Shown piece after piece: positions 4,075 through 35,162 of a stretch of 64,000 bases of DNA. Source of the DNA: Thermoanaerobaculia bacterium (lineage in GTDB: Bacteria > Acidobacteriota > Thermoanaerobaculia > Multivoradales > J023); assembly GCA_030431255.1 (NCBI GenBank), contig JAUIJL010000014.1, forward strand, positions 124,001 to 188,000. The letters run 5' to 3'. Each line of letters starts with the position of its first letter. Position 1 is the first letter of the stretch. Both the position numbers and the translations under genes were made by a program. The notes under the pieces were generated by a model. It saw only the letters and a list, made by a program, of their open reading frames with translations. It did not search any database and was not told where the DNA came from.

Positions 4075-4097
4075 CTAAGGCGGTTGTTTTGGACGAT

Positions 4098-4111
4098 CGG
4101 GGCAAGCCCCG
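4098..4111. repeat. REP-like hairpin, second copy 24 bp from the first
   Basis: CGGGGCAAGCCCCG has the same GCAAG loop with a shorter 5-bp stem. It lies directly behind the stop codon of the FG-GAP gene. Confidence 0.6.
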
Positions 4112-4118
4112 TGGAGAC

Positions 4119-6248: not shown

Positions 6249-6329
6249 GGTGACACGATGCTAGCGTCATTCCGGTTTATGCGCCAGTGGCATGTCTTGC
6301 GAAATGTCTCACGTTGTGCCCGGCACCGC

Positions 6330-6371
6330 AACGGCAGCACCATAACGGCAGCACTACAACAGCAGCAGCTC
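6330..6371. repeat. Short 14-bp tandem repeat
   Basis: AACGGCAGCACCAT and AACGGCAGCACTAC lie head to tail, followed by a degenerate third copy AACAGCAGCAGC. The tract sits in the 146-bp gap between the FG-GAP gene and the hydrolase gene. Confidence 0.5.
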
Positions 6372-6394
6372 GACGCGCACCGATGACCGGCGGG

Positions 6395-8371: not shown

Positions 8372-8390
8372 CGTCTACCGTTCTCCCCGT

Positions 8391-9863: not shown

Positions 9864-10020
9864 GTGGACCTCCGAGCGAGCTGGCTTGAGACGAAAGCTT
9901 AGGATGCAGTTTGTGGCGTTAGGCTATCCCGAAACGAGGTGAAACCGCCAAGGTGAGATGGCCTTGGGTAGGCCGTCGAAATGAGTCTCAGGACGAAGAC
10001 TAGATACGAATCCACACACC

Positions 10021-10623: not shown

Positions 10624-10644
10624 GCCCTCCCGGGGAATCCTTCG

Positions 10645-13852: not shown

Positions 13853-14113
13853 TCAGCCCCCGCCCGGGTCCCTCTCTGCCTCGTCGACACCGCGATCTTT
13901 GGGGCCGAGCAATTTGACGATTTGGCTCCAATCTCCCGAGCTCAGGGCTTTCGACTCTTCGTCCGACAAACCGGCATTGCCGATCACCGAATCCGGGTCG
14001 TCGAGGTAAGCGCGATGGAGGACGTCGTCTAAAGCCATGCGGGCGATCAATCGTCCGAGGCTGGTGACGACGGCGGTGGTTTCTTTTCTCGCGGATCGCA
14101 GATTGTTGGGCAT
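13853..14113 (-). CDS. 86-residue LigA/Os1348-like small protein downstream of the caspase pair
   Basis: The protein reads MPNNLRSARKETTAVVTS..., and its middle, YLDDPDSVIGNAGLSDEESKAL, leads into SGDWSQIVKLLG. That resembles the small helical fold of LigA-type dioxygenase subunits and of Os1348-like RiPP precursor leaders. GGGAG lies a few bases upstream of the ATG. The gene begins 96 bp after the end of the caspase-STAND gene on the same strand, so it may be the last member of that operon. The C-terminal 18 residues (PKDRGVDEAERDPGGG) are charged, probably disordered, and contain basic residues that an Arg/Lys-specific caspase could cut. Both the similarity and the functional link are inferences from the sequence pattern. 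Confidence 0.55.
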   Translation of the reverse strand: MPNNLRSARKETTAVVTSLGRLIARMALDDVLHRAYLDDPDSVIGNAGLSDEESKALSSGDWSQIVKLLGPKDRGVDEAERDPGGG

Positions 14114-14209
14114 GGTGCTCTCCCTGAAAGGTAGATAGAGGCCTGAATGGGAACTGTTTGTGTCCCTACTGTACTAGACGCGATTCGGCAAAATTGCGGG
14201 CCAATTCAT

Positions 14210-21035: not shown

Positions 21036-21254
21036 ATGTCGACCCTGCCCCCACGCCGATTCCTTCACATGCTCCATGCTCGACCGATGCCTCGCGCGGT
21101 GGTCGCGTTGCTTTTGGGCTTAGGCCTTCTGGGGGCCGCCTGGTTGACTCGCCTCGCGGTGGACGGTGCTCGGGATCACCTCCGCCAGTCGGCTGCGGTT
21201 GCTTCGTCGTCGCCCTTTGCCGAGCCCGGATCAACCCTGTCTTCTGATCCCTGA
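21036..21254 (+). CDS. Small single-pass membrane protein
   Basis: The 72-residue protein has a basic N-terminus, one hydrophobic helix (AVVALLLGLGLLGAAWLTRLAV, residues 21-42) and a short polar tail. AAGGAG precedes the ATG at a normal distance. The next gene starts 13 bp downstream, so the two are likely cotranslated. No homologue is recognised. It might anchor or modulate the acyl-synthase protein, but that is only inferred from adjacency. Confidence 0.6.
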   Translation: MSTLPPRRFLHMLHARPMPRAVVALLLGLGLLGAAWLTRLAVDGARDHLRQSAAVASSSPFAEPGSTLSSDP

Positions 21255-21267
21255 GGGAGGAGCCGCC

Positions 21268-22482
21268 ATGAACCTCGCCCAGAATGTGTCCGCCCAGAAC
21301 GTATCCTCCCAAAACGTGTCCGCTGTCCGCCAAGCAGCTGGGGACCTCCGAGCAGCCCGTGGACTACCCAGGGTCCACCGAGCCGAGAGCCGGCAGGAGC
21401 TGGAGGCGATCTACCGATTCCGCTATGAAGTCTATTTCCGAGAATTCGGTCGCTTGCTGGGCGAGCCCGACCACCAGCGCCGTTGGGTGAAAGACCACGA
21501 CGACGAGCTGCCCACCACCACGATTCTTTACACCGGCACTCCCGAGCGCATCACCTCCACGGTTCGTCTGCGCCACTGGCAGCCCGGACAAGTGCCGGAG
21601 CACGACGTCCATGAGCTGTCCATGGATCGCATTCCCGAGCTCGAATCGCTAGCCACCGCCGAAATCGGCCGATTGATGGTCCGCTCGTCCCGTCGGGGTC
21701 GTTTGCAGGTGGCGGCCTTGGTCCGCGCCGCCTACGAGATCTTGGTGGGTGAGCATCAATGCCTGCTGGTCTTCTGTTATTGCTCCCCGGGTTTGGCGCA
21801 TTTCTACCAACGCATCGCCATGCGCCCCTTCGGTGGACGCATGGTGGCGGCGCCGGACGGGGTCATGGTGCCCATGGTGTCGGTGACCTCCGATGTCGAC
21901 TACTACCGCCGAGTCGGCTCCTACCTGGCACCCATGGTCGAGCGTTTTTACGGCCCGGGCAAACTAGCGCCAGTGGACCTCGCGCCCTTCGCGAAGATCT
22001 TCGAAGACACCACCCTCGAGCTCGATACCGCCCGAGTCCGTCGGCTATGTGATCGGTATTTGCACGTGCCCGACCGGTCGTCGAGCCAGGGTCTTTGGCG
22101 CTCAGCCTTCTTCAACTCATTGAAAAGCACCGAGCTCGACGACCTATTGAGCAGCGCCTTGGTGCTCGAAGTCGAGCCGGATGTGGTCGTGACCCGTCGA
22201 GGGTTTTGCGAAGACGAGCTCTACGTGGTCCTGGAGGGGGATTTCGGCGGCTATGGTGTGGGTGATTGCTTCGGCGAAGAAAGCCTGCTCAACGCCGACG
22301 GGCGGAGACGGCACACGATTCGATCGCAGACCGCGGGTCGGCTTCTGGTGATCCGGGGCCGCTGCGTGCAAAAAGTCTTGCGACGTCGGCCCGAGCTGGC
22401 GGTGGCCCTTCGGGGATTGCCTGCAACGTGGCGGCGTCAGCCGGACGGTGATGGGGACGCGCTTGCTCGGAACCTCTTCTGA
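21268..22482 (+). CDS. N-acyl amino acid synthase-like GNAT fused to a cyclic-nucleotide-binding domain
   Basis: I choose the ATG at 21268, which follows GAGGAG; earlier in-frame starts would overlap the upstream gene. The product has 404 residues. Residues 40-225 resemble the FeeM/LuxI-like acyl-transfer GNAT fold, with IYRFRYEVYFREFGR at 48-61 and EIGRLMVRSSRRGR at 132-145. These enzymes transfer an acyl chain from acyl-ACP to an amino acid or similar amine. Residues 285-380 are a cyclic-nucleotide-binding domain (GFCEDELYVVLEGDF, GDCFGEESLL, RRRHTIRS). The fusion suggests an acyl-product signal synthase that is allosterically gated by cAMP or a related ligand. Substrate and ligand are not determined by the sequence. 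Residues 4-19 are three copies of AQNVS-type units. Confidence 0.75.
   Translation: MNLAQNVSAQNVSSQNVSAVRQAAGDLRAARGLPRVHRAESRQELEAIYRFRYEVYFREFGRLLGEPDHQRRWVKDHDDELPTTTILYTGTPERITSTVRLRHWQPGQVPEHDVHELSMDRIPELESLATAEIGRLMVRSSRRGRLQVAALVRAAYEILVGEHQCLLVFCYCSPGLAHFYQRIAMRPFGGRMVAAPDGVMVPMVSVTSDVDYYRRVGSYLAPMVERFYGPGKLAPVDLAPFAKIFEDTTLELDTARVRRLCDRYLHVPDRSSSQGLWRSAFFNSLKSTELDDLLSSALVLEVEPDVVVTRRGFCEDELYVVLEGDFGGYGVGDCFGEESLLNADGRRRHTIRSQTAGRLLVIRGRCVQKVLRRRPELAVALRGLPATWRRQPDGDGDALARNLF
21278..21322 (+). repeat. Three 15-bp tandem repeats at the start of the acyl-synthase gene
   Basis: CCCAGAATGTGTCCG, CCCAGAACGTATCCT and CCCAAAACGTGTCCG lie in frame and encode AQNVS, AQNVS and SQNVS. Slippage here would change the N-terminal length in steps of five residues without breaking the frame. 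Confidence 0.7.
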
Positions 22483-22511: not shown

Positions 22512-22760
22512 TCAGTCTAGGTGTTTTTGTAGCCCGAGGTGCATTGCTACCTCACGAATTGCTTCGCGAGCGTCCCGTCCGTCCTTCCTTTCGATTGCGG
22601 CAATCGTCTCGTCCCAGGCCTGGCCACGTTCAAGGGTCAGGGCGATATTTTCGGGAAATTCTAAGCCCATAAAAGTGATCGTAAATCGGAGTCCTTGGAG
22701 ATGCAACGCTTGCGAACAGATGGATTCATTGCGAAAGCACTCTCTGGACCGCCTTTCCAA
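22512..22760 (-). CDS. Short hypothetical protein at the end of the lasso operon, possibly an FCD-domain remnant
   Basis: The 82-residue frame overlaps the end of the kinase gene by 35 bp if read from 22760; an internal ATG at 22670 would avoid the overlap and give 52 residues. The C-terminal part (AWDETIAAIERKDGRDAREAIREVAMHLGLQKHL) resembles the last helices of GntR-type FCD domains, but no DNA-binding domain is present. It could be a decayed regulator or a chance frame. It is not similar to lasso B1 (PqqD-like) or B2 (transglutaminase-like) proteins. Confidence 0.35.
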   Translation of the reverse strand: MERRSRECFRNESICSQALHLQGLRFTITFMGLEFPENIALTLERGQAWDETIAAIERKDGRDAREAIREVAMHLGLQKHLD

Positions 22761-23685
22761 CGTCCGGTGATTTCGGATAGGTCAGCTCGAGAACGCGGAT
22801 TCGATTCACCACCTCTGCCCAGTGATCGAGCAGCCGACCGGCCAAGGACGGATCGAAGAGGTTGACCGCGATGGTTTGACCGAGCAGCGCGGCGACGGAT
22901 TCGCTCGGTGAGAGGGGACGTCCCTGGACGTTTTCACCGGCGGCTGTGGGTTTGAGCAAGCAGATCTGAGTCAGCGGTAGGGTGGAGGGTAGGCGGGCGA
23001 TGGCTTGGCGTTGGGCTGCCGGCAGACCGAGGTGGGCGATTTCGGGGGAGATGCGGATCTCCGGCTCGCCTCCTTCTCGGTCCATGGCGGGCTCGGATAT
23101 CGGCAAGACGGGGAAGACGTCGTCGGCGACCTTGGGCCAGCCGAGCTCGGCCAAGAGGCTCACCAATGTGGATTTGCCGGCTCCGGACTCACCGATGAAG
23201 GCGACCGCTCCCCCAGGCGTCAGCGCTGCGCTGCCGTGGAGGCAGAAGATGCCCCGATGAGCCAGGGCTGAGCACAGGGCAGGGCCGTGCATCCAAGCGT
23301 TTTGCTCGGCGGCCGGTATGGTTTGGTCGAGCTGCCATTCCACCAGATCCCCATCGGTCGTGATCGCCACGGTACCGCCCTCGAAGGCCAAGAGGTCGAG
23401 CCCTCGGCTCCGGTAGCAGGCGAGCTTCCACGGACGCTCGCAGACCCAGACATCGTTTTGAAAGCGGGGTGCTTGCTCGGGCCGCCAATGGTGCTCGGGA
23501 ATGGTTTGGGGGGAATCGAGGAGTGGGACAGCGGGCGGATCTTGCTCGGGATCTTTGAGGTGTAGGGGCTCGAGACCGAGCACTTCTTGGTCGGAGATCA
23601 GGCGACCGGCGGCGAATCGATAGATGAAATAGGAAGTATGTTCGTGGACATGGCCGCGGCGTCGCAGCCAAATGGGCGACATCAC
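22726..23685 (-). CDS. HprK-like kinase of the lasso-peptide locus
   Basis: The 319-residue protein starts at GTG 23685, or at the next codon (ATG 23682), overlapping the precursor stop as GTGA. The C-terminal half has the HPr kinase/phosphorylase core: LHGSAAL, Walker A GESGAGKST at 165-173, then VADDVFPV with Asp188 and Asp189. HprK-like proteins of this length are known lasso-peptide kinases (PadeK/ThcoK type) that phosphorylate the C-terminal Ser of the precursor. The precursor here ends in Thr, which could be the target. The N-terminal part (residues 1-140) is divergent. It lacks the HPr-binding context and no PTS genes are near, so a peptide-tailoring role is favoured over carbon control. 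Confidence 0.75.
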   Translation of the reverse strand: MMSPIWLRRRGHVHEHTSYFIYRFAAGRLISDQEVLGLEPLHLKDPEQDPPAVPLLDSPQTIPEHHWRPEQAPRFQNDVWVCERPWKLACYRSRGLDLLAFEGGTVAITTDGDLVEWQLDQTIPAAEQNAWMHGPALCSALAHRGIFCLHGSAALTPGGAVAFIGESGAGKSTLVSLLAELGWPKVADDVFPVLPISEPAMDREGGEPEIRISPEIAHLGLPAAQRQAIARLPSTLPLTQICLLKPTAAGENVQGRPLSPSESVAALLGQTIAVNLFDPSLAGRLLDHWAEVVNRIRVLELTYPKSPDVGKAVQRVLSQ

Positions 23686-23876
23686 GTGCCGGGAGGTTTG
23701 GGTGCGAAACCACTCTTCCGGGTGAACGGGTCGAGGCTGTCACCCACGCCGGCGGACACTCCCATGGTCACCTTCTTAAGATCTCCATGAAGCACCAGCT
23801 CCGGCGGTTGGTACGTTCGTTTCTTTTTGGACGTCGCCGGTGAGGCAATATAGGTAGGGTCCTTCGAAAGGCTCAT
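23682..23876 (-). CDS. Lasso-peptide precursor
   Basis: The 64-residue product starts at ATG 23876, whose ATGA overlaps the stop of the cyclase gene. The leader contains Y22-x-x-P25-x-L27-x-x-x-G31-x5-T37, exactly the signature recognised by lasso B1 proteins, with Thr at position -2. Cleavage after Met38 would release a 26-residue core beginning GVSAGVGDSLDP and ending FAPKPPGT. Gly1 and Asp8 of that core are spaced for the usual eight-residue macrolactam ring. Phe13 and Phe19 (FTRKSGF) are plausible bulky plug residues, and the final Thr26 is a possible phosphorylation site for the adjacent kinase. The gene is embedded between cyclase and kinase with four-base overlaps at both ends. The assignment rests on motif and context and is strong. 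Confidence 0.88.
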   Translation of the reverse strand: MSLSKDPTYIASPATSKKKRTYQPPELVLHGDLKKVTMGVSAGVGDSLDPFTRKSGFAPKPPGT

Positions 23877-25732
23877 CCGATGGCTCCTGAGGGCAAGGGG
23901 GACTCTTGTGATGGGTTGGAATGGTTGAGGCTCCGCCGGTGACGGACCCAAAGCTCTAGGCAGATGCTGCGCCAAAGGACGACCCACGCCGGGCCGTCTT
24001 GCAGGCTCGGCAGGGTGTTTTCGTAAGCGTTCTGAAGCCACACGGGGTCGACGAATGGGCGATGGGCGGCGTCGGCGTGGCCGATGAGATCCAAGACCGC
24101 ATCCCTCTCGGCTTCGAGCAGACCCTTAGCGCAGAGGGAAATCAAGCTGCTGACGCGGCGTCGAGCCCGGACGGATTCCGGCAGCCGACCGCGCATGGCT
24201 TCTCGCAGAAGCCATTTGGTCCAGCCCGGACGAAAGAGCAGGTGCGCGGGCAGGCCCCACATGAACGCGGCGAGCCGATAGTCGCGGAAGGGTCGACGCA
24301 GCTCGATGCCGTCGCGCGAGCTGTGGCGAGACTCCAACACCACGGGGCGGGCGCCCTCGGCGCTCAAGAAGGTGTCGGTTTGTTCCGGGCGCCCTGCCGC
24401 AGAGTGATGCTGTCCGACATCGGGGGCTGCCCGTCGATGCCGGGCCGCCAAGTGGGAGAGCCCGCTGCGCAAACCCAAGGGATATCTCGAACGGGCCGCC
24501 CGTGGACCGTGGCGCAACAACCAGGACATCGCCGGTGCCACACCATCGGCGTCGATCCATTCCGTCAGCCAGCGAGAGCTGCCGGCGAAGAGCTCGTCGC
24601 CGTATTCGCCGGTGAGCATGACGTGGCAACCCCGCTCCGCGGCCGCTCGATAGGCGCGACGGCGCAGCTCGCGATAAGGGCCTTCGTACGGGCCGTTGGG
24701 GTCGGTCGCCCAGGTTTCGGGCCGACGCAGGGACCAGCCGTCGTCGCCGACGATCTCGTGGAGCTCGATGGGCAACGCTTCCTTCATGGCATGGATATAC
24801 GTGCGCTCGTCGGCCCTCGGGTGGTGATCGAAAACCCAGGAGAAAGCTTGAGGGCGAGCGGAGCCACCGAGACCTCCACCGAGACCTCCACGGGGGCTCG
24901 CCATGGCTGCCACGGAGGTGGAGTCGAGCCCGCCGCTCATCAGGACGGCCGTCGGCCGCTCGGGGTCGCAGCGATGGTCGACCGCCCGCTGGAAACGCTC
25001 GCGGAAGGCTTCGACATAGTCGGATTCCGAATAACTGTCCAGGCATTCCGGACGCCAAGCGTCGAGGTCGTTGAAGCGCGCTTTGTCGGGGGTGACGATC
25101 AAGACTTGGCCCGGCAGGAGCTCTCGAACGTGGCGGAAGAAGGTGGAGCCTTCGGGGGTGGGTCGCAGCTCGCACCACGCTCGGAGAGTTTCTTGGTCTA
25201 GGGCGTCGTCCACCGCTGGGTGGCAGGCCACCGCGGACGGCTCCGAGGCGATCACCAAGAGGTCTCGGCTCAGGTGATAGTAGAGGGCGCGACCGCCGAA
25301 ACGATCTCTGACGGCGGTGATGCGTTGCTCGAAGGGCTCGACCACCACCGCGACAAAGGGGCCGAGCAAGTGTTGCCACGCCCCTTGACCCCAACGGCGC
25401 CATGCCGCGTCCGCGAGATCGCTGGGGTCGGCTCGCGGCCCGAGGTCCAGCTCACGGCGGAGCTCGTCGGCATTTTCCAGCCGTCCGTCGAAGAACAAAC
25501 GACCCGCTGAAGCCGGGCTATTCGCCCCCCGGATCGACGCTTCCCTCAGCGAGCGATTCTCCGTGCACCAGCAGGCTCGGCCCAGGCTTTCGAAGCGACA
25601 CGACGACGGATCGACCGACGGTGGCAAAGCCAAAGCTTTGAAGACACGGTCGACCGCCGGCGCGCTCTCGATGGAGCCGGCGCGGGCGTTGTCGACGTCG
25701 CCGCGGGTGAAGGTCAAGGCTATGGCTGCCAT
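23873..25732 (-). CDS. Lasso-peptide cyclase (asparagine-synthase family)
   Basis: I choose the ATG at 25732, which follows GGAGG, giving 619 residues; the longer frame to 25975 adds low-complexity sequence inside the neighbouring gene. Residues 1-240 are a class II glutamine-amidotransferase-like domain without the N-terminal catalytic Cys (the protein starts MAAIALTF), as in lasso cyclases. The synthetase domain holds the ATP-pyrophosphatase loop SGGLDS at 266-271 and VMLTGEYGDELFAGSS further on. The expected reaction is adenylation of the Asp8 side chain and closure of the amide with Gly1. The stop codon overlaps the precursor start (ATGA). It begins 31 bp after the giant C25 gene, so it is either read through from there or uses a promoter inside that gene. 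Confidence 0.85.
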   Translation of the reverse strand: MAAIALTFTRGDVDNARAGSIESAPAVDRVFKALALPPSVDPSSCRFESLGRACWCTENRSLREASIRGANSPASAGRLFFDGRLENADELRRELDLGPRADPSDLADAAWRRWGQGAWQHLLGPFVAVVVEPFEQRITAVRDRFGGRALYYHLSRDLLVIASEPSAVACHPAVDDALDQETLRAWCELRPTPEGSTFFRHVRELLPGQVLIVTPDKARFNDLDAWRPECLDSYSESDYVEAFRERFQRAVDHRCDPERPTAVLMSGGLDSTSVAAMASPRGGLGGGLGGSARPQAFSWVFDHHPRADERTYIHAMKEALPIELHEIVGDDGWSLRRPETWATDPNGPYEGPYRELRRRAYRAAAERGCHVMLTGEYGDELFAGSSRWLTEWIDADGVAPAMSWLLRHGPRAARSRYPLGLRSGLSHLAARHRRAAPDVGQHHSAAGRPEQTDTFLSAEGARPVVLESRHSSRDGIELRRPFRDYRLAAFMWGLPAHLLFRPGWTKWLLREAMRGRLPESVRARRRVSSLISLCAKGLLEAERDAVLDLIGHADAAHRPFVDPVWLQNAYENTLPSLQDGPAWVVLWRSICLELWVRHRRSLNHSNPSQESPLPSGAIG

Positions 25733-25763: not shown

Positions 25764-28700
25764 CTACCACGGCTCGACGTGCTCCGGCTGTCCCTGTCCC
25801 GGCTGTCCTTGCTCTGGCTCTCCCTGCTCAGAGTTTGCGCCCGTCGGCTCCACCGCCACCGCCATGGCCGGATCGCCGAGCAGGGTCCATCCCAACAAGA
25901 TGTCGACCATCTCGGGATGCTGCTCGCCCAAACGCCGTTTGGCCTCGGTGAGAGCGCCGCCGATCGTCCAGCCACGCTCGCCCAAGAGGGGCAGGATCTC
26001 GCGCGCTAATCCGAGGTCGGATTCCGGCTCGGTCAGTGTCGCGGCGCCGAGCACCGCGGCCCCGCCTCGATCACCGCCCAACAACAGCTCATGACCCATG
26101 GTGTCGTAGGTGGGGGTGACGTAATAGGTATTCCAACAACCCCATTGGGCGAAGATCGACGGCAAGCCGTGGTTGGTCAAGCCGGCGGCGTCGTTGGTGG
26201 TGAAGAGCTGCAGGAAGGACCACAGGGTCGGACCGCTGTGTCCGAAGTAATGGGTCAGCGATACGCCGGATTCTACGCGGCTCATCAGCTCTGCTCGGGC
26301 TCCCGCGAGACCGAGATCGTCGATGTCGGCGTGGTGCACGGACCAATCCGGTCCGAGGTAACCCGCCAGCTCCGAGCTGATGTCGGCGAACGACAGGCCG
26401 GCACCGCCGTCGAAGGCGTCGCTGGCGAAGAGGGCCGCTCCGGAAGGCGTGTTCTCGGCGTAGGCCAGAATCTTGCCGATCAGAATCTCGAGCTCCTCCA
26501 CCGTGCGCACCGGCAGGCGGCCGACCGCCAGCTCCGGCAGGCCGTCGTCGTCGACATCGGCGAAGAGGGTGTCGGTGGGCGCGTATTGCACGATTGAGCT
26601 GGTGGCCGCGTAGAGGGACGGGATGAAGCTGATGGAGCCGACCCCCAGGCGGTCTTTGTAGTCGTAGGTATCGCCGCCCACCAAGAGCAGGAAGCGGGCG
26701 CCTTTGACCTCGGCGGCGAATCGCACGTAGTCGCGGATGGCGTTCGGATCCACCACGCCACCGCTGTAGATCTGGTAGAGATCGTTGACGTCGACCACCT
26801 CGACGGCGTACCCGTCCGCCCGGCGAGCGTCCGCCAAGGGCGTTATGGCCTGTCGGAAATCTCCGTGGGTGACGATCAAATAGTCGGCCGGTGTGCGGCT
26901 CGGAATCGGCAGCTTGGGCATGGACCGAACTTGCGGCCGGAGGAACGAGCCGTCGGTCGCCAGCCAATAAGTAGTGGGCTCACCGGTGCCGGCGAAGCGG
27001 GCGGTGAATCCGTTGAAACCACCGATGATCTCGAGGTCGGTCAAGCGCTCGATCGGTCCTGCTTGACCGAGCTCCCCTCGGACCTGTCGATAGACGGCCA
27101 CGTCGGCGGACGGCAGGGCGTTGACCCGCAGGTTTTCAGCAGTGTCGGATTCGAAGGTCAGCCGACCCTCGGGCGCTTCCAGGCGACGCGCGTAGGTCAC
27201 GCCGTAGGCTTCGAGGGCGACCAGATCCCAATCCCCTCCGACGTCTTGGGGTTGGTGGATCACCAGCTCGTTGTGAGCTTGCAGCAAACCCGGCGGCAGC
27301 TCCACCTCAACGGGGTAGTCCACCAAGCCGTCGAAGATCTCGTCCGCCAACAGAACCCCGTTGAGGGAGATCTGCACGTGGTGGTCGGGGCTCACCGGCC
27401 AATTCGTGACACCCCACATCTCCACCTTCAGGCTGGCCGGTCCGTCGCCGAGCACAGCGGCTTCGATCGGTAGGTCGAGGGTGGTGGTCAAGGGGGCTCC
27501 GTTGGCCAGCATCCAGCGGTCGTACCATGGGTCTCCGTTGGGCGACGCGAAGCTGTAGTCCCGGTTTTCTTCCACCCGATGGGTCGCCGGGTAGCTGTCG
27601 ATGTTGCCGGCCAGGGATTGCGGAGCGGCCGACTGTGGATCGGGACGCAGGGCGGATCGAGGATCGAGGACCAAGCGGTAGACGTTGCGATCGGTGTATT
27701 GGCTGTCGATGGCCGCACCGACGAATTCGATCACGCAGCCTTCCTGGAATCGGTCCGGGCAGCTGACGAAGATGGGCTGGGGCTCATCCCCGCGCAGCAA
27801 GGCCAGCTGGCGGCTCGGCAGGCTGCCCCATTGGGCGACGCGATCATCGGCCTCGGCGAGGTCTTGCCAGGTCACCCGGTGGACGCCGTCGGCGAAGACT
27901 CCGAGCTCGAAGTAGGGTCGACCGCTACGGTGTTGGGGTTGCTCGCCGGCTTTTTGAAGCTGGGCCTGAAGCTCTTGGGCTCGGAGCTGCCGCTCGCGGA
28001 TCTCTTGCCAGGGAATCGGCGCGCCCATGGGCAGGGCCTTGCCTTGGATACCGCGCTGGAACGGCCCGTGGAATCGCGCCGTGCCCCGGGTATCGATGTC
28101 TTCGAGCAAGAAAGCTTCGGCTTTTTGGGTCCAAAGATGCTTCTCGTCCATGGCGATGGCCAAGCGATAGGTCTGCGGCTCGATGGAATCGATGCGCCGG
28201 GAGGGCACGAATTGGTGGACCAGCTGCCACTGCTTGCCCACCCGAGCCCAGAGGTAGAAGCCCACATTGCCCGCCTCGGTGGCGGTGATCCACTCGAGGT
28301 GCAGGGTGTCGTCCGCTTGCCACGAGCTGAATGACGCCAGGGTCACCGGCAGGGCTTGGGGCTGGCTTTGGTAGCCGAAATCGGCGTCGTTGTAGTCGTC
28401 GGAATTAGTCGCCAGCACCACGTCCAGGGGCTCGTTGCCGGTGGTCAGCGTGTAGGCGGTGGAGGGCAGGGTGTCCTCGTCCACATCGACCCGATAGCTG
28501 CCGGCGGAGAGACCGGTGAAGTCGTAGGCACCGGTGGCGTCGGTGAAGGTGGTGGCCACCAACACGTCGTCGGCGGTGCCGAGCATGCCGTCGCTGCCCG
28601 GGGTGTAGAGCCGCACCAGGACGTTTTCGATGCCCGACTCGCCGGTGGGATCGCCGTCGCCGTTCTCATCTTCCCAAATGAAGTCGCCGATCGACGCCGC

Positions 28701-31700
28701 GTTGGGGGTGACCAGGGTCTCGCTGACCGTGTCGCTGACCGGAGGCAGCTCGTCGGAGTCGGCGAAGGCGGTATTGACCAAATCCGTGACGCCGAGGGGC
28801 GCGGGATTGTCGACCAAGACCTGGAAGGTGACGGTCATGATTTCCGCCGGCAGCAGATCGTAGCCGTCGGCGGTGGTGACCAGGCCCGAGGGATCGTGGG
28901 CGGCAAAGGTGCCGTTGGCCCGGGGCACGATCTCGATTTGCAGGTCGTCGACGAAGAAGAGGTCGCCGACCGCGAGGCCGGACGACAGGAAGCGCACCAC
29001 GGCGTTCGACACCAGGTAATCGCTGATGTCGTAGGAGGCGTTTTGGTACGTCGCGTCGGTCGTCACGGTGGCGCCGTCGAAGGTGTCGAGCACGTCGAAA
29101 TTGCTGCCGCCGTCGTCGGAGATTTCGACGGTCACGAAGTCGCTCGCGTTGTCGAAGGCCTCGCGGCGGTAGCTGAAGGTCAGGGTGCCCGTGGCGCCGG
29201 TGGAGAGATCCGCTTGGCGCGAGGCGCCGTTGCCGGCTCGACGAATTCTCAAGCTGTTGTCGCCGCCGTCGGCGGTGACGATGACGTCGCCTGTGGCGGC
29301 GTTGCCGTCGTCGCTGATCTCGGCCCACGGATTGGGTGCCCAATTGACGGTGCCGGTGCTGCCGGCATAACCGCCGGTTTCGAAGTCATCGGCGTAGGTC
29401 GCGGCGGTTTGGTCGACCGGGGTGGTGACCTGGCTGCTGGCGGCGACGTAGGACGAGCCCGTCGGCACGGCGTCGGTGACGGTGACGTTGTTGGCGATGG
29501 CCGAGCCGGTGTTGGTGACCACCATGGTGTAGGTCACGGTGTCGCCGGGGTTGACCGAGCCACCTCCATCGGAGGTCTTGACGATCGTCAGCAGGGGCGC
29601 GTCGCCCACGGTGACGTCCTCATCGTCTTCGGGATCGAAGGTCTTGGGCGTGTCCGCGTCTTGGGGCACGGTGCCGTCGTCGTCGATGGTGGCGTGGTTC
29701 GTGGCGCTCAGGGACGCGGTGTTGTCGTAGGTTCCGGCGCTCACCCCGGCGCCGATATCGACCACGAAGGTGACCGTGATCGAGCCTCCGGCGTCGATGT
29801 CCCAGGTGCCCCAGCCGAGGGCGTTGTCACCGACGGTGGGGTCGGTGGTGATGGTACGGGTGGCGCCCGATTCCACCACCGAGCTGCTCGCATAGGTAAA
29901 GCCCGTGGGCAAGGTGTCGGCGAGGGTCACGTCCGTGGCCGTGGCGGTGCCGGAGTTGCGCACGGCGATGGTGTAGGTCGCCTGGCCGCCGGCGGTGACG
30001 TCGGGGGTGGAGGTGTCCTTGTCGATGTCGAGGATCGGGATCGAATCCCGTTGGTAGCCGAAGTCGATGGTCAGGTCGACGCCGCCGGCCAGCACCACCG
30101 TGGCCACGGAGTCGCAGGTGACACAGCCGTTGCCTTCGTCGGGATCGTAGGTTTGGCTGATGTTGGCCGGCAAGGTGCCGGTCACCACCGTCACCGTGTA
30201 GGTGTCGTTGGCCAGATCTCCAAAGGAATAATTGCCCTCGGAGTCGGTGGTGGTGGTGGCGATCAGGGTGTTGGTGCCGTCCCGCAGCTCCACCGTGACC
30301 CCGGCGATGCCCTCTTCGGCGATCGGGTCGAAGACGCCGTCGCCGTTGTCGTCGATCCACACCGTATCGCCGATCACGCCCGGCGGCTGGACGCCGAAAT
30401 CGGCGTAGCGGATGGTGTCCCCGGCGTTGACCGTCAGGCCGGTCTCGCCGTCGGCGGTGGCGTCGGGATCGCCGGTGACGGTGGTGCTCGGCAGATCCGG
30501 ATCCGTCAGATCCATCACCACCACGTACTCGCCGGCGGGCAGGCCGTTGAATTCGTAGTTGCCCGAGCTGTCGGTGACGTCGGTGGCCACCAGGGTGTCG
30601 GTGCCGGCGTCGTAATCGCCGTCGCCGTTGACGTCGTTGTAGAGGCTGACGGTGATGTTGGCCAGGCCGATCTCGGTTTCGCTCTGCAAGCCGTCGCCGT
30701 TGTCGTCTCGCCACACGGTGTCGCCGATGATGGCGCCGGTGCCGAAGCCGAAGTCGGCGTCCTCGTGGATCTCCGCGCCCGCCAGGGTCACGGTGTAGGG
30801 ATCCGTGTCCGAGGTGGTGAGCACGTAGAGATTGCCGAAGCCGTCGGTGGGCAGGTCGGTGTCGGTGGTGTCGACGAACACGATGTAGCTACCGGCCGGC
30901 AGCAGGGACGGGAATTGGTAGAAACCCGTGGCGTCGGTGAACGTGGTGCTGACCAAGGCGTCGTCGGCGGGATCGTAGATGCCGTTGCCCGCCGTGTCCT
31001 CGTAGAGGGTGAGGGTAATGTTTTCGAGGCCGCTTTCGCCGCTGTCGAAAATGCCGTTGCCGTTGGCGTCGTTCCACACCAGATCGCCGATGGCGGCGAA
31101 TCCCACGGGTTGGTAGCCGAAATCGATCAGATCCGTGCCGGTCACGCCGTCGAGGGTCACCGACGCCGATCCGTCACACACGGTGCACAGCCCGCTCTCG
31201 TCCGGATCTTGGGTGTTCTGATAGGTGTTGGGCAGGGCAGCGGAGCCTTGCACGGCTTGCACGATGAAGTCGCCGGCGGGCAGGCCGGTGAAGCTGTAGA
31301 GACCGTCCGCGTCGGTGACGGTGGTGGCGATGAGGGCGTCTTCGGGGTCGACCACGCCGTCGCCGTCGGCATCTTCGTAGAGGTTGACCGTCACACCGGC
31401 CAGACCTTCCTCGCCGGTGTCGGTATCGCCGTCACCGTTCCAATCCGCGTACACCAAATCGCTGATGAAGGACGTGCTGGCTTGCTGGTAGGCAAAGTCG
31501 TAGGCACCGAAGATCTGACCGCCGGAGACCACCAGGGTGGAGGTGGTTTGATCGTCGACGGTGGCGTCGGGATCCACGGTTTGGGTCCAGGTACCGCCGG
31601 CGGGCAAAGTGGTGGTGTCGACCACCACGCGGTAATTGCCGTCCACCAGATCCTCGAAGAGATAGGAGCCGTCGGCGGCGGTGGCGACGGTGACGGTGGC

Positions 31701-34700
31701 GCCGTCGTCACCGTTTCCGCAGATGGTGTCCAGGCCGCAGTCCTCGAGACGCACTGTGACGCCCGCGATGCCGTTTTCGCCGGAATCTTGGGTGCCGTTG
31801 CCGTCGTGGTCTTGCCAAACATTGCCGTAGACCGCGTTGGGCACGGTGTAGCCGAAGTCGATGTTGGTGAGGTCGTCGTTGGCCGAGCTGCCGTCGTTGT
31901 TGTTGAGGGTGCCGCCGCCCTGGTTGTCGAGGGTGGCGTCGGGATCACCGGTTTGGGTGAAGGTGGAGCCGGGCAAGGTGGCGGTGGAGACCACGGCCAC
32001 ATAGTTGTCGTCGCCCAGGCCGTCGAAGAGGTAATCCCCGTTGGCGTCGGTCACCTGGGTGTCGACTAAAACGCCGTCCGCGGGATCGCCGTCGCCGTTG
32101 GGATCGGTGAAGAGCTGCACGGTCACGCCTGGGATCCCTTGCTCGCCGCCGTCTTGGGTGCCGTTGGCCGACGTGCCGCCGCCGAAGCCGTTGTCGTTCC
32201 AAACCGTGCCCGCCAAGCTGCCGGTGGGATTCAACGTCGACACCGCGTCGTCGGTGGCGTCGTTCAAGGGGGTGCCGTCGCTGAACGTGGCGCCGGTGGT
32301 GCTGCCCGTATTGGTCAGGACGGCGCTGTCGTTCTCGCCGTCGGCGTCGTTGTCGGGTGGCTCGAGGGCGGTGAAGGTCACCGAGATGGTGGTGCTCTGG
32401 CCGGTGTTCAAAGGCCCGACATCGCTCCAGCTGAGCACACCGGTATTGGCGTAAGGCGTGTTGGTAAAGCTCTGGCCGGTGATCGCCGGCGAGGCCGAAA
32501 CGAATTGCAGGAGGTCGGCGTCGTAGGTGTCGGTCACCGGCAGGGGCGAGATCGAGCTGGCCGAGGCGCCGCTGCAGGAATAGCTGGAGGTGACCCGGAA
32601 ACCCAGGGCGTCGACGAAGGAGGTGGCGCCGTCGGCTCCGCCGGTTTTGACCGAGTCGATCTCTACCGAGGCACCGCCGGCGGCGTCGAAATCGGGCCAA
32701 TCCCAGGCGTGGGAGGCGGTGACGTCGACCGCCAACAGGCCGGCATCGGCAATCGTGGTGCCGTAGGTGTTGAGGGTCGGAATCGGCAGGTTGTCGGTCT
32801 GCACGATGGCGTTGTTGGCGTAGGTGTTGATCAGCAGGAAGTCGTCGACCAAGGGGGCGTCGACGTAAAAGAAGAAAATGGCCTCGACTTGGGTGATGGC
32901 GCCCAGACCCGCGTTGACCTGGCTCGCCAGGTCGAAGGTGTCGCCTTGCAGCTGCTTGTTGCCGGGGAAGTTGGAATTGGCGTAGAGGCCGTCGGGCCCG
33001 CCGGCGCCGACCGCGTTGGTGGGCGAGGTCCATTGACCCGAGAGCTCGTTTTGCGCCCAGGTGGTGTACACGCAGGGCTCACCCCCTTGGACGTTGTTGG
33101 TGAGGGTGATGTCGTAGGTCACCAAGCCGGCCTCGGTTGCCGGATCCGACGAGGTCAAGGTTTTGGCGAGGCTGAGGGCCGGACGGAAACCGAAATCGGC
33201 GTCGTTGAACGGGCTCGCCAGGGTCGTGCCGAGCTCGAAGGCGGCAATGACCTCATCGGTGGTCAGGGTGAAACCCGTGGGCAGCTGCGGATCGTTGGTA
33301 TCGACCGCCACCAAGAAGTTGCCGTCGGGCAGGAGGTCGAAGGAGTAATTGCCGCTGCCGTCGGAGGAGGCGGTGGTGACCAGGATGTCGTCCGCGTCCA
33401 GCTCGCCGTCGCCGTCGACATCGTAGTAAAGCTCGACCGTGATGTCGGCAATGCCGGCCTCGCCGCCGTCCACCACACCGTCGCCGTCGTCGTCGCTCCA
33501 CACCAGATCGCCGATGGTGTTGGTGCCTTGGATCAGGGTGACGGTGGAATCGTCGTCGAAGGGGGGAGCGGAGCCGAATCCCACCTCGCCGGTGTTGATC
33601 ACGAACGGAGCGCCGCCGAAGGGGGAGTCCACGGTGACGTCGAAGGTCACGGAGCCGGTGCCACCCGCGGGCAAGTTATCCTGCAACCACCATTGAATGT
33701 CGGTCACGGTGGAGGCGTCGGCCGGCTCGGTCTCGGAGAAGCTGGTGCCGCCGTCGGTGGAGTAGAGGATTACGACGCCGTTGTTGGGCATGAAGCTCAG
33801 ACTCGCGGCGGCGGTGCCGGCCGCGTAGGAGGTGCCGGTGGGAATCGAGTCCCGCAGCACCAGGGGCATGGCCAAGTCCACCAGACCCGCGGGTTCGGTG
33901 CCGATATTCTCGAAGTCCATGGAGTAGGTCAGGGTTCCGCCGGGCAAGACCGAGTCGAGGTCGACGTTCTTGTCCAGGGTCACCTCGGGGGCCGAGCTAT
34001 CGAGCCGGGGCAGAGAGGCGCCGTAGTCGCCTGAGAATTTCTCATTGTCCGCCCCAGAAGCCACTTCTTGGTAAGGGGTGATCGCCACGGAGCATGGGCC
34101 CCTCAAGACCATGAAGGAGTAGACCACCGTGCCCACGCCACCGGTGTTGTCGGCGGGCAGATTCGGGTAGTAGAGCTGGTCGACAAAGTCGAGCACCAGG
34201 TCGGGCTGGCCGCCGCTGCGGCTGATGATCACCTGGGATTCGGATTTGATCAGCCGATAACAAGTGGGGTCGAAGCTCGGGTCGCCGATCGGCTGCAACC
34301 AGGCGTTGTAGTCGAACGAGAGATCGCCGTCGTTGTCGAAGCCCTTGTTGATATTGCCCAGATCGTAATTGACGCCGTTGGTCGTGATGATGCTGCCGGG
34401 CACGGCGGAGACCGGCTCGTTGAACCAGAGGCCACCGCTGGGCTCGATTTTGTTGGCGTTGGCGGAGATCTCGTTGCGCATGGTCGCCCGACGGGTGAGG
34501 TCAGCGGTGGCGCCCTCGGCGCTGGTGGTCCACATGTCGAAGGTCAGCCAAAGATCATCGTCCGGGGTGTTGGAATTGCCCCAGACCTTGTCGCCGGTAT
34601 TGTCTGGATTGCCCCGGCGGGGGTAGGTGAAATGCCAATATTGGACCTTGCACTCGCCGATGGCTAGATTGCCCACCCAACGCGCGGCGTCGGTCGCGCC

Positions 34701-35147
34701 GCCCAGGTGGGTGAAGGAGTAGGTGCCTGTGGACGATAGGTGGGGATGCTCCGCTTGAAACGCGGCGTCGGCGCTGTCGCGGCTCGGGTAGGTGCCCGGG
34801 GTGCCGGCGGAAAAATCGCCGATGAACATCTGCACATTGGTCAGCGGAACGGTGCCGTAGTTACAGGCCTTGCCGTTGACGGTGGCCACCGCCGGCGCAT
34901 AGGTCGACGGCGAGAGGACGTTGGAGTCGACCACCAGGTTGTAGGCGGCGTCGACCTCGAGGGTGAGCACCGGAGCGCCGAGCACCGGCGCCGCGAGCGC
35001 GGGGCTCAATACGAGCAGGAGCGCGATCAGGGTCCCGAACGTGGCGCGGTGTGATCCAGTGGGCCTGGGCAGAACCTGTCGATCCGTTCCCGCAAAACGG
35101 CGGAATCGTAAGAAAGAATCCTTCACATAAAGGCTTGTCGGGTTCAT
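25764..35147 (-). CDS. Giant secreted protein: DUF11-like and SdrD-type B repeats with C-terminal gingipain-like C25 peptidase
   Basis: I choose the ATG at 35147 (MNPTSLYVKDS), which has GGAG six bases upstream, giving 3127 residues. A hydrophobic export segment (LIALLLVLSPALAAPVLGA) lies near residue 50. The body contains DUF11-like units (for example LDIDKDTSTPDVTAGGQATYTI) and eight SdrD-type B repeats of the form IGDxVWxDxNGDGxxDxGExG, each with a calcium-binding Asp/Gly loop and a GxYxFxxLPxGxYxV strand. The final 450 residues are a peptidase C25 domain: catalytic His in HYFGHSG (codon 26240-26238) and Cys in AQWGCWN (codon 26138-26136), preceded by a gingipain-like region (DYLIVTHGDFRQAI). 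It would form a long calcium-stiffened stalk carrying a cysteine protease outside the cell. No LPXTG or sorting tail is visible; it ends in a Glu/Gln/Pro-rich low-complexity tail. Confidence 0.85.
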   Translation of the reverse strand: MNPTSLYVKDSFLRFRRFAGTDRQVLPRPTGSHRATFGTLIALLLVLSPALAAPVLGAPVLTLEVDAAYNLVVDSNVLSPSTYAPAVATVNGKACNYGTVPLTNVQMFIGDFSAGTPGTYPSRDSADAAFQAEHPHLSSTGTYSFTHLGGATDAARWVGNLAIGECKVQYWHFTYPRRGNPDNTGDKVWGNSNTPDDDLWLTFDMWTTSAEGATADLTRRATMRNEISANANKIEPSGGLWFNEPVSAVPGSIITTNGVNYDLGNINKGFDNDGDLSFDYNAWLQPIGDPSFDPTCYRLIKSESQVIISRSGGQPDLVLDFVDQLYYPNLPADNTGGVGTVVYSFMVLRGPCSVAITPYQEVASGADNEKFSGDYGASLPRLDSSAPEVTLDKNVDLDSVLPGGTLTYSMDFENIGTEPAGLVDLAMPLVLRDSIPTGTSYAAGTAAASLSFMPNNGVVILYSTDGGTSFSETEPADASTVTDIQWWLQDNLPAGGTGSVTFDVTVDSPFGGAPFVINTGEVGFGSAPPFDDDSTVTLIQGTNTIGDLVWSDDDGDGVVDGGEAGIADITVELYYDVDGDGELDADDILVTTASSDGSGNYSFDLLPDGNFLVAVDTNDPQLPTGFTLTTDEVIAAFELGTTLASPFNDADFGFRPALSLAKTLTSSDPATEAGLVTYDITLTNNVQGGEPCVYTTWAQNELSGQWTSPTNAVGAGGPDGLYANSNFPGNKQLQGDTFDLASQVNAGLGAITQVEAIFFFYVDAPLVDDFLLINTYANNAIVQTDNLPIPTLNTYGTTIADAGLLAVDVTASHAWDWPDFDAAGGASVEIDSVKTGGADGATSFVDALGFRVTSSYSCSGASASSISPLPVTDTYDADLLQFVSASPAITGQSFTNTPYANTGVLSWSDVGPLNTGQSTTISVTFTALEPPDNDADGENDSAVLTNTGSTTGATFSDGTPLNDATDDAVSTLNPTGSLAGTVWNDNGFGGGTSANGTQDGGEQGIPGVTVQLFTDPNGDGDPADGVLVDTQVTDANGDYLFDGLGDDNYVAVVSTATLPGSTFTQTGDPDATLDNQGGGTLNNNDGSSANDDLTNIDFGYTVPNAVYGNVWQDHDGNGTQDSGENGIAGVTVRLEDCGLDTICGNGDDGATVTVATAADGSYLFEDLVDGNYRVVVDTTTLPAGGTWTQTVDPDATVDDQTTSTLVVSGGQIFGAYDFAYQQASTSFISDLVYADWNGDGDTDTGEEGLAGVTVNLYEDADGDGVVDPEDALIATTVTDADGLYSFTGLPAGDFIVQAVQGSAALPNTYQNTQDPDESGLCTVCDGSASVTLDGVTGTDLIDFGYQPVGFAAIGDLVWNDANGNGIFDSGESGLENITLTLYEDTAGNGIYDPADDALVSTTFTDATGFYQFPSLLPAGSYIVFVDTTDTDLPTDGFGNLYVLTTSDTDPYTVTLAGAEIHEDADFGFGTGAIIGDTVWRDDNGDGLQSETEIGLANITVSLYNDVNGDGDYDAGTDTLVATDVTDSSGNYEFNGLPAGEYVVVMDLTDPDLPSTTVTGDPDATADGETGLTVNAGDTIRYADFGVQPPGVIGDTVWIDDNGDGVFDPIAEEGIAGVTVELRDGTNTLIATTTTDSEGNYSFGDLANDTYTVTVVTGTLPANISQTYDPDEGNGCVTCDSVATVVLAGGVDLTIDFGYQRDSIPILDIDKDTSTPDVTAGGQATYTIAVRNSGTATATDVTLADTLPTGFTYASSSVVESGATRTITTDPTVGDNALGWGTWDIDAGGSITVTFVVDIGAGVSAGTYDNTASLSATNHATIDDDGTVPQDADTPKTFDPEDDEDVTVGDAPLLTIVKTSDGGGSVNPGDTVTYTMVVTNTGSAIANNVTVTDAVPTGSSYVAASSQVTTPVDQTAATYADDFETGGYAGSTGTVNWAPNPWAEISDDGNAATGDVIVTADGGDNSLRIRRAGNGASRQADLSTGATGTLTFSYRREAFDNASDFVTVEISDDGGSNFDVLDTFDGATVTTDATYQNASYDISDYLVSNAVVRFLSSGLAVGDLFFVDDLQIEIVPRANGTFAAHDPSGLVTTADGYDLLPAEIMTVTFQVLVDNPAPLGVTDLVNTAFADSDELPPVSDTVSETLVTPNAASIGDFIWEDENGDGDPTGESGIENVLVRLYTPGSDGMLGTADDVLVATTFTDATGAYDFTGLSAGSYRVDVDEDTLPSTAYTLTTGNEPLDVVLATNSDDYNDADFGYQSQPQALPVTLASFSSWQADDTLHLEWITATEAGNVGFYLWARVGKQWQLVHQFVPSRRIDSIEPQTYRLAIAMDEKHLWTQKAEAFLLEDIDTRGTARFHGPFQRGIQGKALPMGAPIPWQEIRERQLRAQELQAQLQKAGEQPQHRSGRPYFELGVFADGVHRVTWQDLAEADDRVAQWGSLPSRQLALLRGDEPQPIFVSCPDRFQEGCVIEFVGAAIDSQYTDRNVYRLVLDPRSALRPDPQSAAPQSLAGNIDSYPATHRVEENRDYSFASPNGDPWYDRWMLANGAPLTTTLDLPIEAAVLGDGPASLKVEMWGVTNWPVSPDHHVQISLNGVLLADEIFDGLVDYPVEVELPPGLLQAHNELVIHQPQDVGGDWDLVALEAYGVTYARRLEAPEGRLTFESDTAENLRVNALPSADVAVYRQVRGELGQAGPIERLTDLEIIGGFNGFTARFAGTGEPTTYWLATDGSFLRPQVRSMPKLPIPSRTPADYLIVTHGDFRQAITPLADARRADGYAVEVVDVNDLYQIYSGGVVDPNAIRDYVRFAAEVKGARFLLLVGGDTYDYKDRLGVGSISFIPSLYAATSSIVQYAPTDTLFADVDDDGLPELAVGRLPVRTVEELEILIGKILAYAENTPSGAALFASDAFDGGAGLSFADISSELAGYLGPDWSVHHADIDDLGLAGARAELMSRVESGVSLTHYFGHSGPTLWSFLQLFTTNDAAGLTNHGLPSIFAQWGCWNTYYVTPTYDTMGHELLLGGDRGGAAVLGAATLTEPESDLGLAREILPLLGERGWTIGGALTEAKRRLGEQHPEMVDILLGWTLLGDPAMAVAVEPTGANSEQGEPEQGQPGQGQPEHVEPW
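28450..33520 (-). repeat. Eight SdrD-type B repeats in the giant protein
   Basis: The units begin IGDLVWSDDDGDGVVDGG, LAGTVWNDNGFGGG, VYGNVWQDHDGNGTQDSG, FISDLVYADWNGDGDTDTG, AIGDLVWNDANGNGIFDSG, IIGDTVWRDDNGDGLQ, VIGDTVWIDDNGDGVFDP and SIGDFIWEDENGDGDPTG. They are diverged at the protein level, so this is an old domain array and not a recent DNA duplication. Boundaries are approximate. Confidence 0.75.
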
Positions 35148-35162
35148 TCGAGGCTCCAACAT

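What the first reader, a model, noticed from the sequence alone, without database searches (positions are those of the whole stretch)
22726..25732. Undescribed lasso-peptide locus with overlapping cyclase, precursor and kinase genes
Seen: an asparagine-synthase-type gene, a 64-residue precursor and an HprK-like gene overlap by four bases each (ATGA, GTGA). The precursor carries Y22-x2-P25-x-L27-x3-G31-x5-T37 followed by a core starting GVSAGVGD. Known: that signature, Thr at -2, a first Gly and an Asp or Glu at position 7-9 define lasso precursors. Inference: an eight-residue Gly1-Asp8 ring with a long 18-residue tail containing FTRKSGF.
Basis: partly seen in the sequence, partly recalled or inferred. 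Interest (0 to 1): 0.9.

Follow-up and report, generated by a model that had tools for sequence, protein, structure and literature searches.

The report
Lasso-peptide locus paired with giant protease
A bacterium, probably an acidobacterium, carries genes for a knotted "lasso" peptide that is probably phosphorylated, and in related bacteria the same peptide genes keep turning up beside the gene for a large exported protease, which hints at an unknown partnership between the two.

Summary
In detail: overlapping minus-strand genes for an Asn-synthetase-type cyclase (25732-23873), a 64-aa precursor (23876-23682) and an HprK-like kinase (23685-22726). The precursor passes NCBI's lasso-leader model. 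The cyclase lacks the glutaminase Cys and scores higher on the lasso than on the AsnB model. The kinase keeps the motif spacing of BsfK, which phosphorylates core Ser3. Relatives keep Gly1, Ser3 and Asp/Glu8. No mass evidence exists.

(2) The gene 31 bp upstream (35162-25764) encodes a 3132-aa exported-looking protein ending in a C25 (gingipain/PorU-type) peptidase domain. A discrete C25 subfamily (40 members in 148 genomes of the class) lies within 10 kb of this cyclase in 15 of the 21 other best loci, in permuted orders; C25-cyclase-precursor also recurs in MAGs labelled Contendobacter, Proteobacteria and Anaerolinea. (3) In relatives the pathway can be scattered over contigs.

Verdict: new variant of the phosphorylated lasso peptide kind. 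Its C25 link was not found in the open-access papers searched; what it does is inference.

The parts
25764..35162 (-). 3132-aa giant: signal-peptide-like N-terminus (by eye), SdrD-B/DUF11 repeats, C-terminal C25 (gingipain/PorU-type) peptidase domain with GHSG and WGCWN motifs; 31 bp upstream of the cyclase
   Evidence: Pfam PF01364 201 bits, SdrD_B 8 stretches; subfamily search; motifs; PDB PorU 6za2 E 9e-12; N-terminus printed
23873..25732 (-). Asn-synthetase-type lasso cyclase (C), SGGLDS present, no Cys at position 2
   Evidence: NF033535 196.8 > TIGR01536 164 bits; N-terminus and motif; tree
23682..23876 (-). 64-aa lasso precursor (A): leader 1-38, core GVSAGVGDSLDPFTRKSGFAPKPPGT
   Evidence: NF033521 23.1 bits, cut-off 19; family alignment
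23739..23762 (-). predicted macrolactam ring Gly1-Asp8 (GVSAGVGD), Ser3 the predicted phosphorylation site
   Evidence: conservation; BsfA/BsfK precedent PMC10368454; inference
22726..23685 (-). HprK/PEPCK-fold precursor kinase (K): H150, G165-G168-G170-K171-S172, D188-D189
   Evidence: BsfK spacing; AlphaFold pLDDT 86.9; HprK/P 3tqf Z 10.5 over residues 146-319

Best explanation
The locus makes a phosphorylated lasso peptide of a family tied to a subfamily of exported C25 peptidases. Proposed steps: an RRE (B1) binds Y(-17)xxP(-14)xL(-12) of the leader; the HprK-like kinase phosphorylates Ser3 on the linear precursor; B2 cleaves after Met38; the cyclase activates Asp8 with ATP and joins it to the Gly1 amine, closing an 8-residue ring around the tail. 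B1 and B2 are not encoded here and are most likely supplied in trans by the canonical lasso locus on contig C25 of the same genome. The product is then exported and acts with the C25 giant outside the cell, most likely as its dedicated regulator (inhibitor or activator) or as its substrate. Shown: genes, motifs, family resemblance by sequence, genomic linkage. Inferred: every chemical step, trans supply and the partnership.
For: Leader model passed and rare genome-wide. Cyclase nearer lasso than AsnB models, no Cys2. Gly1/Ser3/Asp-Glu8 conserved. Kinase motif spacing as in BsfK, which phosphorylates Ser3, and HprK/PEPCK fold. Trans supply: no B1/B2 in the window; one strong lasso-type B2 in the genome, in a complete locus with the same leader spacing; stand-alone B1-B2 pairs in G053 and G054, whose cyclase loci lack them. 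C25 link: 16 of the 21 non-window best cyclase loci have a C25 gene within 10 kb (15 of the subfamily, one general) against 3 of 39 lower-ranked Asn-synthetase rows (Fisher 9e-8); by genome, window's genome left out, both 19, cyclase only 2, C25 only 4, neither 122 (5e-18; relatedness not corrected) (counted). Gene order is permuted and the set recurs in L157, L167 and L171.
Against: No mass or activity data. The tree's deep forks are open, so membership of the canonical lasso-cyclase clade is not shown by phylogeny. NF033535's cut-off (525) is missed, as it is by the annotated lasso cyclases scanned. G038, G056 and G120 (96-97% complete) have cyclase and precursor but no convincing B2 (G056 only a 26-bit match in a 537-aa frame), so trans supply is not general. 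A kinase also sits beside a lasso-like precursor with Phe at position 3 (G087:C163, L084/L152). Of the 40 subfamily C25 genes 16 adjoin a cyclase, 5 more only a precursor, and 19 have no lasso gene found in the fetched flanks. G055 and G056 have no C25 beside the cyclase, and G045 has none at E <= 1e-10.
Confidence: 0.55

Rival explanations
1. An ordinary phosphorylated lasso peptide (antibiotic, signal or metal binder). The C25 giant is a frequent neighbour because both belong to one envelope or secretion regulon, with no molecular contact.
For: C25 genes are common in the class (76 of 148 genomes); 19 of 40 subfamily C25 genes have no lasso gene found nearby; G055, G056 and G045 keep the cyclase without adjacent C25.
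Against: It is one discrete C25 subfamily (223-574 bits against 194 and below for the rest), in permuted orders and in MAGs of other phyla; a precursor follows a C25 giant with no cyclase between in L112, L113, L126 and L129.
Confidence: 0.3
2. The C25 peptidase is a maturation protease: it replaces B2 where B2 is missing, or trims the tail at the basic residue that many cores carry near position 15-16 (TRK here, FRA/FRP in relatives).
For: C25 subfamily present in G038, G056 and G120, which lack a convincing B2; R or K at core positions 14-17 in 17 of 25 cores; gingipains cut at Arg or Lys (recalled); a leader peptidase other than B2 exists in the related LPP clusters (PMC13381572, passages).
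Against: C25 giants look exported (by eye), while leader removal should precede the cytosolic ATP-driven cyclisation; C25 also sits in loci with clustered B1/B2 (G044, G104, G116, G122); 8 of 25 cores lack the basic residue.
Confidence: 0.2
3. A decayed or non-functional lasso locus, left without B1/B2 and exporter.
For: No B1 or B2 in the window and no exporter recognised among its called neighbours; cyclase on a fairly long branch with a diverged N-terminus.
Against: Frames intact with ribosome sites and tight overlaps; active-site motifs of cyclase, kinase and C25 retained; 16 of the 22 best loci, window included, show neither B1 nor B2 in the fetched flanks, some on short contigs.
Confidence: 0.1
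4. The product is not threaded: a branched-cyclic or linear phosphopeptide, like the LPP peptides phosphorylated at S3 (PMC13381572).
For: Some relatives have precursor and kinase with no cyclase nearby (L112; nine gammaproteobacterial loci).
Against: The window has a co-translated cyclase gene; the nine gammaproteobacterial genomes each hold a cyclase of this family on another contig.
Confidence: 0.15

Closest known systems
bsf cluster of Bradymonas sediminis (PMC10368454; sections 22-23 and passages seen)
   Same: HprK-like kinase with the same motif spacing; Gly1-Asp8 ring predicted; Ser3 the kinase target; Tyr(-17), Pro(-14), Leu(-12) leader.
   Different: bsf has clustered B1, B2, transporter and nucleotidyltransferase and Ile at -2; here Thr at -2, no B1/B2 in the locus and a C25 giant upstream. 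The gene list seen for bsf names no C25 gene.
Paeninodin-type lasso peptides and kinases (ThcoK, SyanK), passages of PMC8498205
   Same: HprK-homologue kinase acting on a linear lasso precursor.
   Different: Those phosphorylate a C-terminal Ser; here the C-terminus is Thr and is not conserved, Ser3 is.
Linear polyphosphorylated peptides (LPP) of Bacillota, passages of PMC13381572
   Same: Lasso-like leader motif, discrete RRE, HprK-like kinase that targets core residue S3, a leader peptidase other than B2.
   Different: Only about a third of those SpI clusters were linked to lasso enzymes such as the macrolactam synthase; the window has a cyclase. A SipW-like peptidase was not searched for here.
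Gingipain/PorU C25 peptidases
   Same: C25 domain with His and Cys motifs; PorU (6za2) is the nearest solved sequence.
   Different: A discrete subfamily, C-terminal in giants (with SdrD/DUF11 repeats in the window) and linked to lasso genes; no T9SS role was tested.

Membership tests
Lasso peptide (class of RiPP) | Leader Y(-17)xxP(-14)xL(-12) with Thr(-2) | tested here: met
   NF033521 23.1 bits, cut-off 19; positions read
Lasso peptide (class of RiPP) | Core Gly1 and Asp/Glu at 7-9, conserved in homologues | tested here: met
   13 precursors at the 22 best loci, window included: Gly1 13/13, Asp/Glu8 12/13, one Asp9 (the pattern allowed only G/A at 1 and D/E at 6-9)
Lasso peptide (class of RiPP) | Asn-synthetase-like C protein without glutaminase Cys2, nearer to lasso than to AsnB models | tested here: met
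Lasso peptide (class of RiPP) | Cyclase inside the clade of canonical lasso cyclases | tested here: inconclusive
   groups with its own family (98/97; 24 rows 92/77), AsnBs apart (100/99), but deep forks open at 87/41 and other lasso cyclases do not form one group
Lasso peptide (class of RiPP) | NF033535 curated score of 525 bits (not a defining feature) | tested here: not met
   196.8 bits; annotated lasso-cluster cyclases also miss it (374 and 451)
Lasso peptide (class of RiPP) | B1 (RRE) and B2 (leader peptidase) in the cluster | tested here: not met
   none in the window; a lasso-type pair in L025 on another contig. Not met in cis, possible in trans
Lasso peptide (class of RiPP) | Isopeptide ring threaded by the tail | not testable with these tools
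   needs mass spectrometry and NMR or ion mobility
HprK-like lasso precursor kinase | H-G..G.GKS-DD motif and HprK/PEPCK fold | tested here: met
   same spacing as BsfK; HprK/P 3tqf Z 10.5, 3.3 A over 127 residues
HprK-like lasso precursor kinase | Target residue: Ser3 (BsfK type) or C-terminal Ser (ThcoK type) | tested here: inconclusive
   Ser3 13 of 13 in the family, 1 of 9 in other precursors; window ends in Thr and the family end is not conserved; no assay; a kinase also accompanies a GPF core (L084/L152)
Peptidase family C25 | PF01364 score and catalytic His/Cys | tested here: met
   201 bits; GHSG and WGCWN

The most novel reading that the evidence does not exclude
Phosphorylated lasso peptides of this family are dedicated partners (inhibitor, activator or processed ligand) of a subfamily of giant exported C25 peptidases. 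One pathway, scattered over the genome with shared B1/B2, would serve several C25 proteins: a lasso-protease pairing kept across phyla, not a strain-specific antibiotic.
Probability: 0.35. Interest if true: 0.8.

Novelty: new variant of a known kind. Interest (0 to 1): 0.55.

Why it matters
Few lasso peptides have a known role in the cell that makes them (recalled). Here the ring is nearly constant (G-x-S-x-G-x-G-D/E-S in most) across several families of the class and into gammaproteobacterial MAGs, and the genes keep company with one subfamily of exported-looking cysteine peptidases. That gives a concrete, testable partner for a lasso peptide. It also shows that loci without B1/B2, which cluster-based mining might discard, can belong to pathways scattered over a genome.

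Tried and rejected
Searching named genomes with the window cyclase alone found nothing; a precursor alignment then found 25 loci, but its pattern fixes Ser3, so those loci cannot test Ser3. The regular expressions also fix Ser/Thr3; hence the Ser3 count uses only, and the '25 of 25' is partly circular. One search's pattern can also have missed divergent precursors beside C25 genes. Considered: that the kinase's N-terminal part is an RRE standing in for B1. Its model aligns with HprK/PEPCK structures over residues 10-319, so I claim none; that no RRE is listed proves nothing. Considered: an RRE-precursor fusion in L070 (143 aa). hhalign to my B1 set is weak (E 9e-4, probability 23%) and Pfam finds nothing at 0.01: a lead only. 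Considered: C25 in place of B2; disfavoured because C25 looks exported and occurs beside clustered B1/B2. A secreted serine protease beside gammaproteobacterial cyclases was suspected from a GGSSGSGL motif, but Pfam gave no such match; not used. C25-subfamily-like genes (296 bits or more as best hit) occur in all 14 genomes outside the class that were searched because they hold the precursor, but I had no precursor-less control there; not used as proof. The C25 lists were cut at the bottom, so weak C25 neighbours may be missing from the 39 control rows. The 39 rows are the rows below the best 22, without two second pieces of genes already counted. B1 in L062 and L065 was assigned by eye before the local B1 profile was built. 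Literature: listings of searches 'lasso peptide' with C25, gingipain, Acidobacteria, Acidobacteriota, unclustered/stand-alone, HPr kinase, leader peptidase in trans, Thermoanaerobaculia with lasso and RiPP with peptidase C25 showed no description of this link; only open-access papers are held, listings were mostly not followed into the papers, and supplements were not read.
Full report
What is there. On the minus strand lie, in order, a 3132-aa gene (35162-25764), a 31-bp gap, a 619-aa Asn-synthetase-type gene (25732-23873), a 64-aa gene (23876-23682) and a 319-aa gene (23685-22726). The last three overlap by ATGA and GTGA. The next called gene, on the other strand, is FeeM-like with a weak cyclic-nucleotide-binding match. 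The window is G000:C39:124001-188000 of a 10.2-Mb genome, 98.8% complete. Two contigs of genome G038, of the same class, are titled Thermoanaerobaculia; other titles in that class read Acidobacteria, Terriglobia or Deltaproteobacteria, so the organism is most likely an acidobacterium of Thermoanaerobaculia.

Is it a lasso precursor? Y22, P25, L27, G31 and T37 fall at -17, -14, -12, -8 and -2 of a core GVSAGVGDSLDPFTRKSGFAPKPPGT. NF033521 lasso_leader_L3 gives 23.1 bits (cut-off 19); the rhodolasso and lasso_cyano models give matches below their cut-offs. In the whole genome three places pass the leader cut-off; the other two are the tandem precursors of locus L025.

Is the cyclase a lasso cyclase? 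It scores NF033535 (lasso) 196.8 against TIGR01536 (AsnB) 164. Two plasmid-borne cyclases annotated beside PqqD and B2 show the same order (374/238 and 451/218); the genome's own AsnB and a Pseudomonas AsnB the reverse (209/438 and 314/493). None of the lasso-type cyclases scanned reaches the NF033535 cut-off of 525. The window protein has SGGLDS and no Cys at position 2, while the three AsnBs start MCGI. In a 36-row ML tree it groups with two relatives (98/97), inside 24 cyclases of this family (92/77), and the AsnBs form their own group (100/99). The deep forks are open (87/41) and the other lasso cyclases do not form one group, so the tree neither puts this family among canonical lasso cyclases nor takes it out. 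Left out of the tree: genome rows L004-L008 (L004 is the gene of the L026 row that was kept) and the family members L065, L071 and L076.

Relatives. Among 148 genomes of the class, 44 have a cyclase match at E <= 1e-20. I took the 22 best loci (146 bits or more, window included). At 13 of them a leader pattern that leaves position 3 free finds a precursor: Gly1 13 of 13 (the pattern allows G or A), Ser3 13 of 13, Asp/Glu8 12 of 13, one with Asp9. Nine distinct precursors of other lasso-type loci found by the same pattern have Ser3 once. Six further loci have a precursor found with a pattern that already required Ser/Thr3; at three (L059, L071, L138) I found none. The consensus of 16 members is RRPYxxPxLxxxGDLRxLTLGxSPGVGESGxPxxFRP.

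Kinase. BsfK of Bradymonas sediminis phosphorylates Ser3 of its precursor; its motif is H148-G163-G166-G168-K169-S170-D186-D187, and its precursor is predicted to close Gly1-Asp8 (PMC10368454, sections 22 and 23 and passages). The window kinase has H150-G165-G168-G170-K171-S172-D188-D189, the same spacing. The full G..G.GK[ST] string is found in 22 of 27 related kinases; H150, G168, G170, K171, S172, D188 and D189 are invariant in a 15-row alignment. The AlphaFold model (pLDDT 86.9, pTM 0.87) matches PEP carboxykinase (2pc9, Z 12.0, 4.1 A, 224 residues) and HprK/P (3tqf, Z 10.5, 3.3 A, 127 residues, model 146-319). The C-terminal Ser targeted by paeninodin-type kinases (PMC8498205, passages) is not a feature of the family. 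Against this: a kinase also accompanies a precursor with a GPF core at G087:C163 (L084, L152).

Missing B1 and B2. The window has neither. In the genome the one strong lasso-type B2 (148 bits with a 15-row B2 profile; 88 bits with PF13471) is on contig C25, next to a PqqD gene, a cyclase and two precursors; the next B2-profile match has 36 bits. The leaders share Y..P.[IL]...GD....T at the same spacing, so trans processing is plausible, not shown. In relatives B1 and B2 lie with the cyclase in 5 of 22 loci (G044, G045, G104, G116, G122), B1 alone in G031, neither in 16 (window included), some on short contigs. G053 and G054 carry a B1-B2 pair with no cyclase in the fetched 10-13 kb, in similar surroundings. 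G038 and G120 have no B2 match and G056 only a weak one. In nine gammaproteobacterial MAGs (eight titled Lysobacterales, one Alcanivoracaceae) the precursor sits with the kinase, in eight also with a B2 match, and the cyclase lies on another contig, in some behind a gene that looks like rlpA (by eye).

The C25 partner. The upstream giant ends in a C25 domain (PF01364 201 bits) after SdrD-B and DUF11 repeats; by sequence the nearest solved proteins are PorU (E 9e-12) and Lys-gingipain (1e-4). Searching the class with aa 2500-3132 gives 40 hits of 223 bits or more (39-49% identity apart from the window itself) in 24 genomes, then a drop to 194 bits and 33%. A C25 gene lies within 10 kb of the cyclase in 16 of the 21 non-window best loci (15 of this subfamily, one general, G087), against 3 of 39 lower-ranked rows (G036, G101, G102); Fisher 9e-8. 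Two of the five exceptions (G053, G047) end near contig ends; G055, G056 and G045 are real exceptions. By genome, without G000: both 19, cyclase only 2, C25 only 4, neither 122 (5e-18; relatedness not corrected). Gene order varies: C25-C-A-K in the window, C-A-K-C25 in L066 and L162, C25-A-C-K in L165, C-A-C25 in L153, C25-C-A-K-B1 in L168. In L112, L113, L126 and L129 a precursor follows a C25 giant with no cyclase between. C25, cyclase and precursor also recur together in a Contendobacter MAG (L157), a proteobacterial MAG (L167) and a MAG labelled Anaerolinea (L171); the last label could be a binning error. Both catalytic motifs were found by pattern in 35 of 45 frames, the rest including truncated ones. 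Still, 19 of 40 subfamily genes have no lasso gene found in the fetched flanks.

How it probably works. Phosphorylation of the linear precursor, leader removal and cyclisation follow the order known for such systems. The C25 giant looks exported, so it cannot easily remove the leader before a cytosolic ATP-dependent cyclisation. I therefore favour a partnership outside the cell, with the peptide as regulator or substrate of C25. This is inference, about one in three.

Novelty. Phosphorylated lasso peptides with an HprK-like kinase and Ser3 as target are known (PMC10368454), and related linear peptides phosphorylated at S3 are known (PMC13381572, passages only). In the search listings I saw no paper linking lasso genes with C25 peptidases or describing this core family. 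The MAGs are public and genome-mining tools may well flag some of these loci. Hence: new variant of a known kind.

Noticed in passing
L025 (G000:C25:174000-190000) 6336-9551: A second, complete lasso locus of the same genome: PqqD, B2, cyclase and two precursors with near-identical leaders and Cys-rich cores (GRPNLDADDACDCTKSCGCDEIAL), next to genes that look like an ABC transporter and HlyD (by eye).
   Followed up: partly
L070 12818-13249 (G059:C75): 143-aa ORF that may fuse an RRE-like domain to a lasso core (GPSAGVGESGNPLIFRSP) without YxxP in front of it; support is weak (hhalign E 9e-4, probability 23%).
   Followed up: partly
L106 (G000:C35:596000-614000) 385-13031: Two general C25 giants followed by a PqqD gene, a radical SAM/SPASM gene and a weak HprK-like gene: another RiPP-like set beside C25 peptidases.
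   Followed up: partly
L026 (G000:C35:727000-743000) 4063-8757: PqqD, Asn-synthetase-type gene, HprK-like kinase and a PRMT-like methyltransferase, with no PF13471 or lasso-leader match there.
   Followed up: partly
L198, L199, L200, L205 (gammaproteobacterial MAGs): Cyclase directly behind a gene that looks like rlpA (by eye), while precursor and kinase sit on another contig.
   Followed up: partly
window 13853-20817: Two adjacent caspase-like (Peptidase_C14) genes, one with nSTAND1 and WD40-type repeats, with an 86-aa ORF without a Pfam match downstream.
   Followed up: partly
window 21166-22482: FeeM-like N-acyl amino acid synthase with a weak cyclic-nucleotide-binding match (below Pfam's cut-off).
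   Followed up: no
window 22512-22760: 82-aa ORF overlapping the end of the kinase, resembling by eye the C-terminal end of an FCD/GntR regulator; no Pfam or NCBIfam match.
   Followed up: no
L120 5375-6094 and L121 6553-7333: Stand-alone B1-B2 pairs in two related genomes, each near a protein ending in a short LRRR-type tail (by eye).
   Followed up: partly
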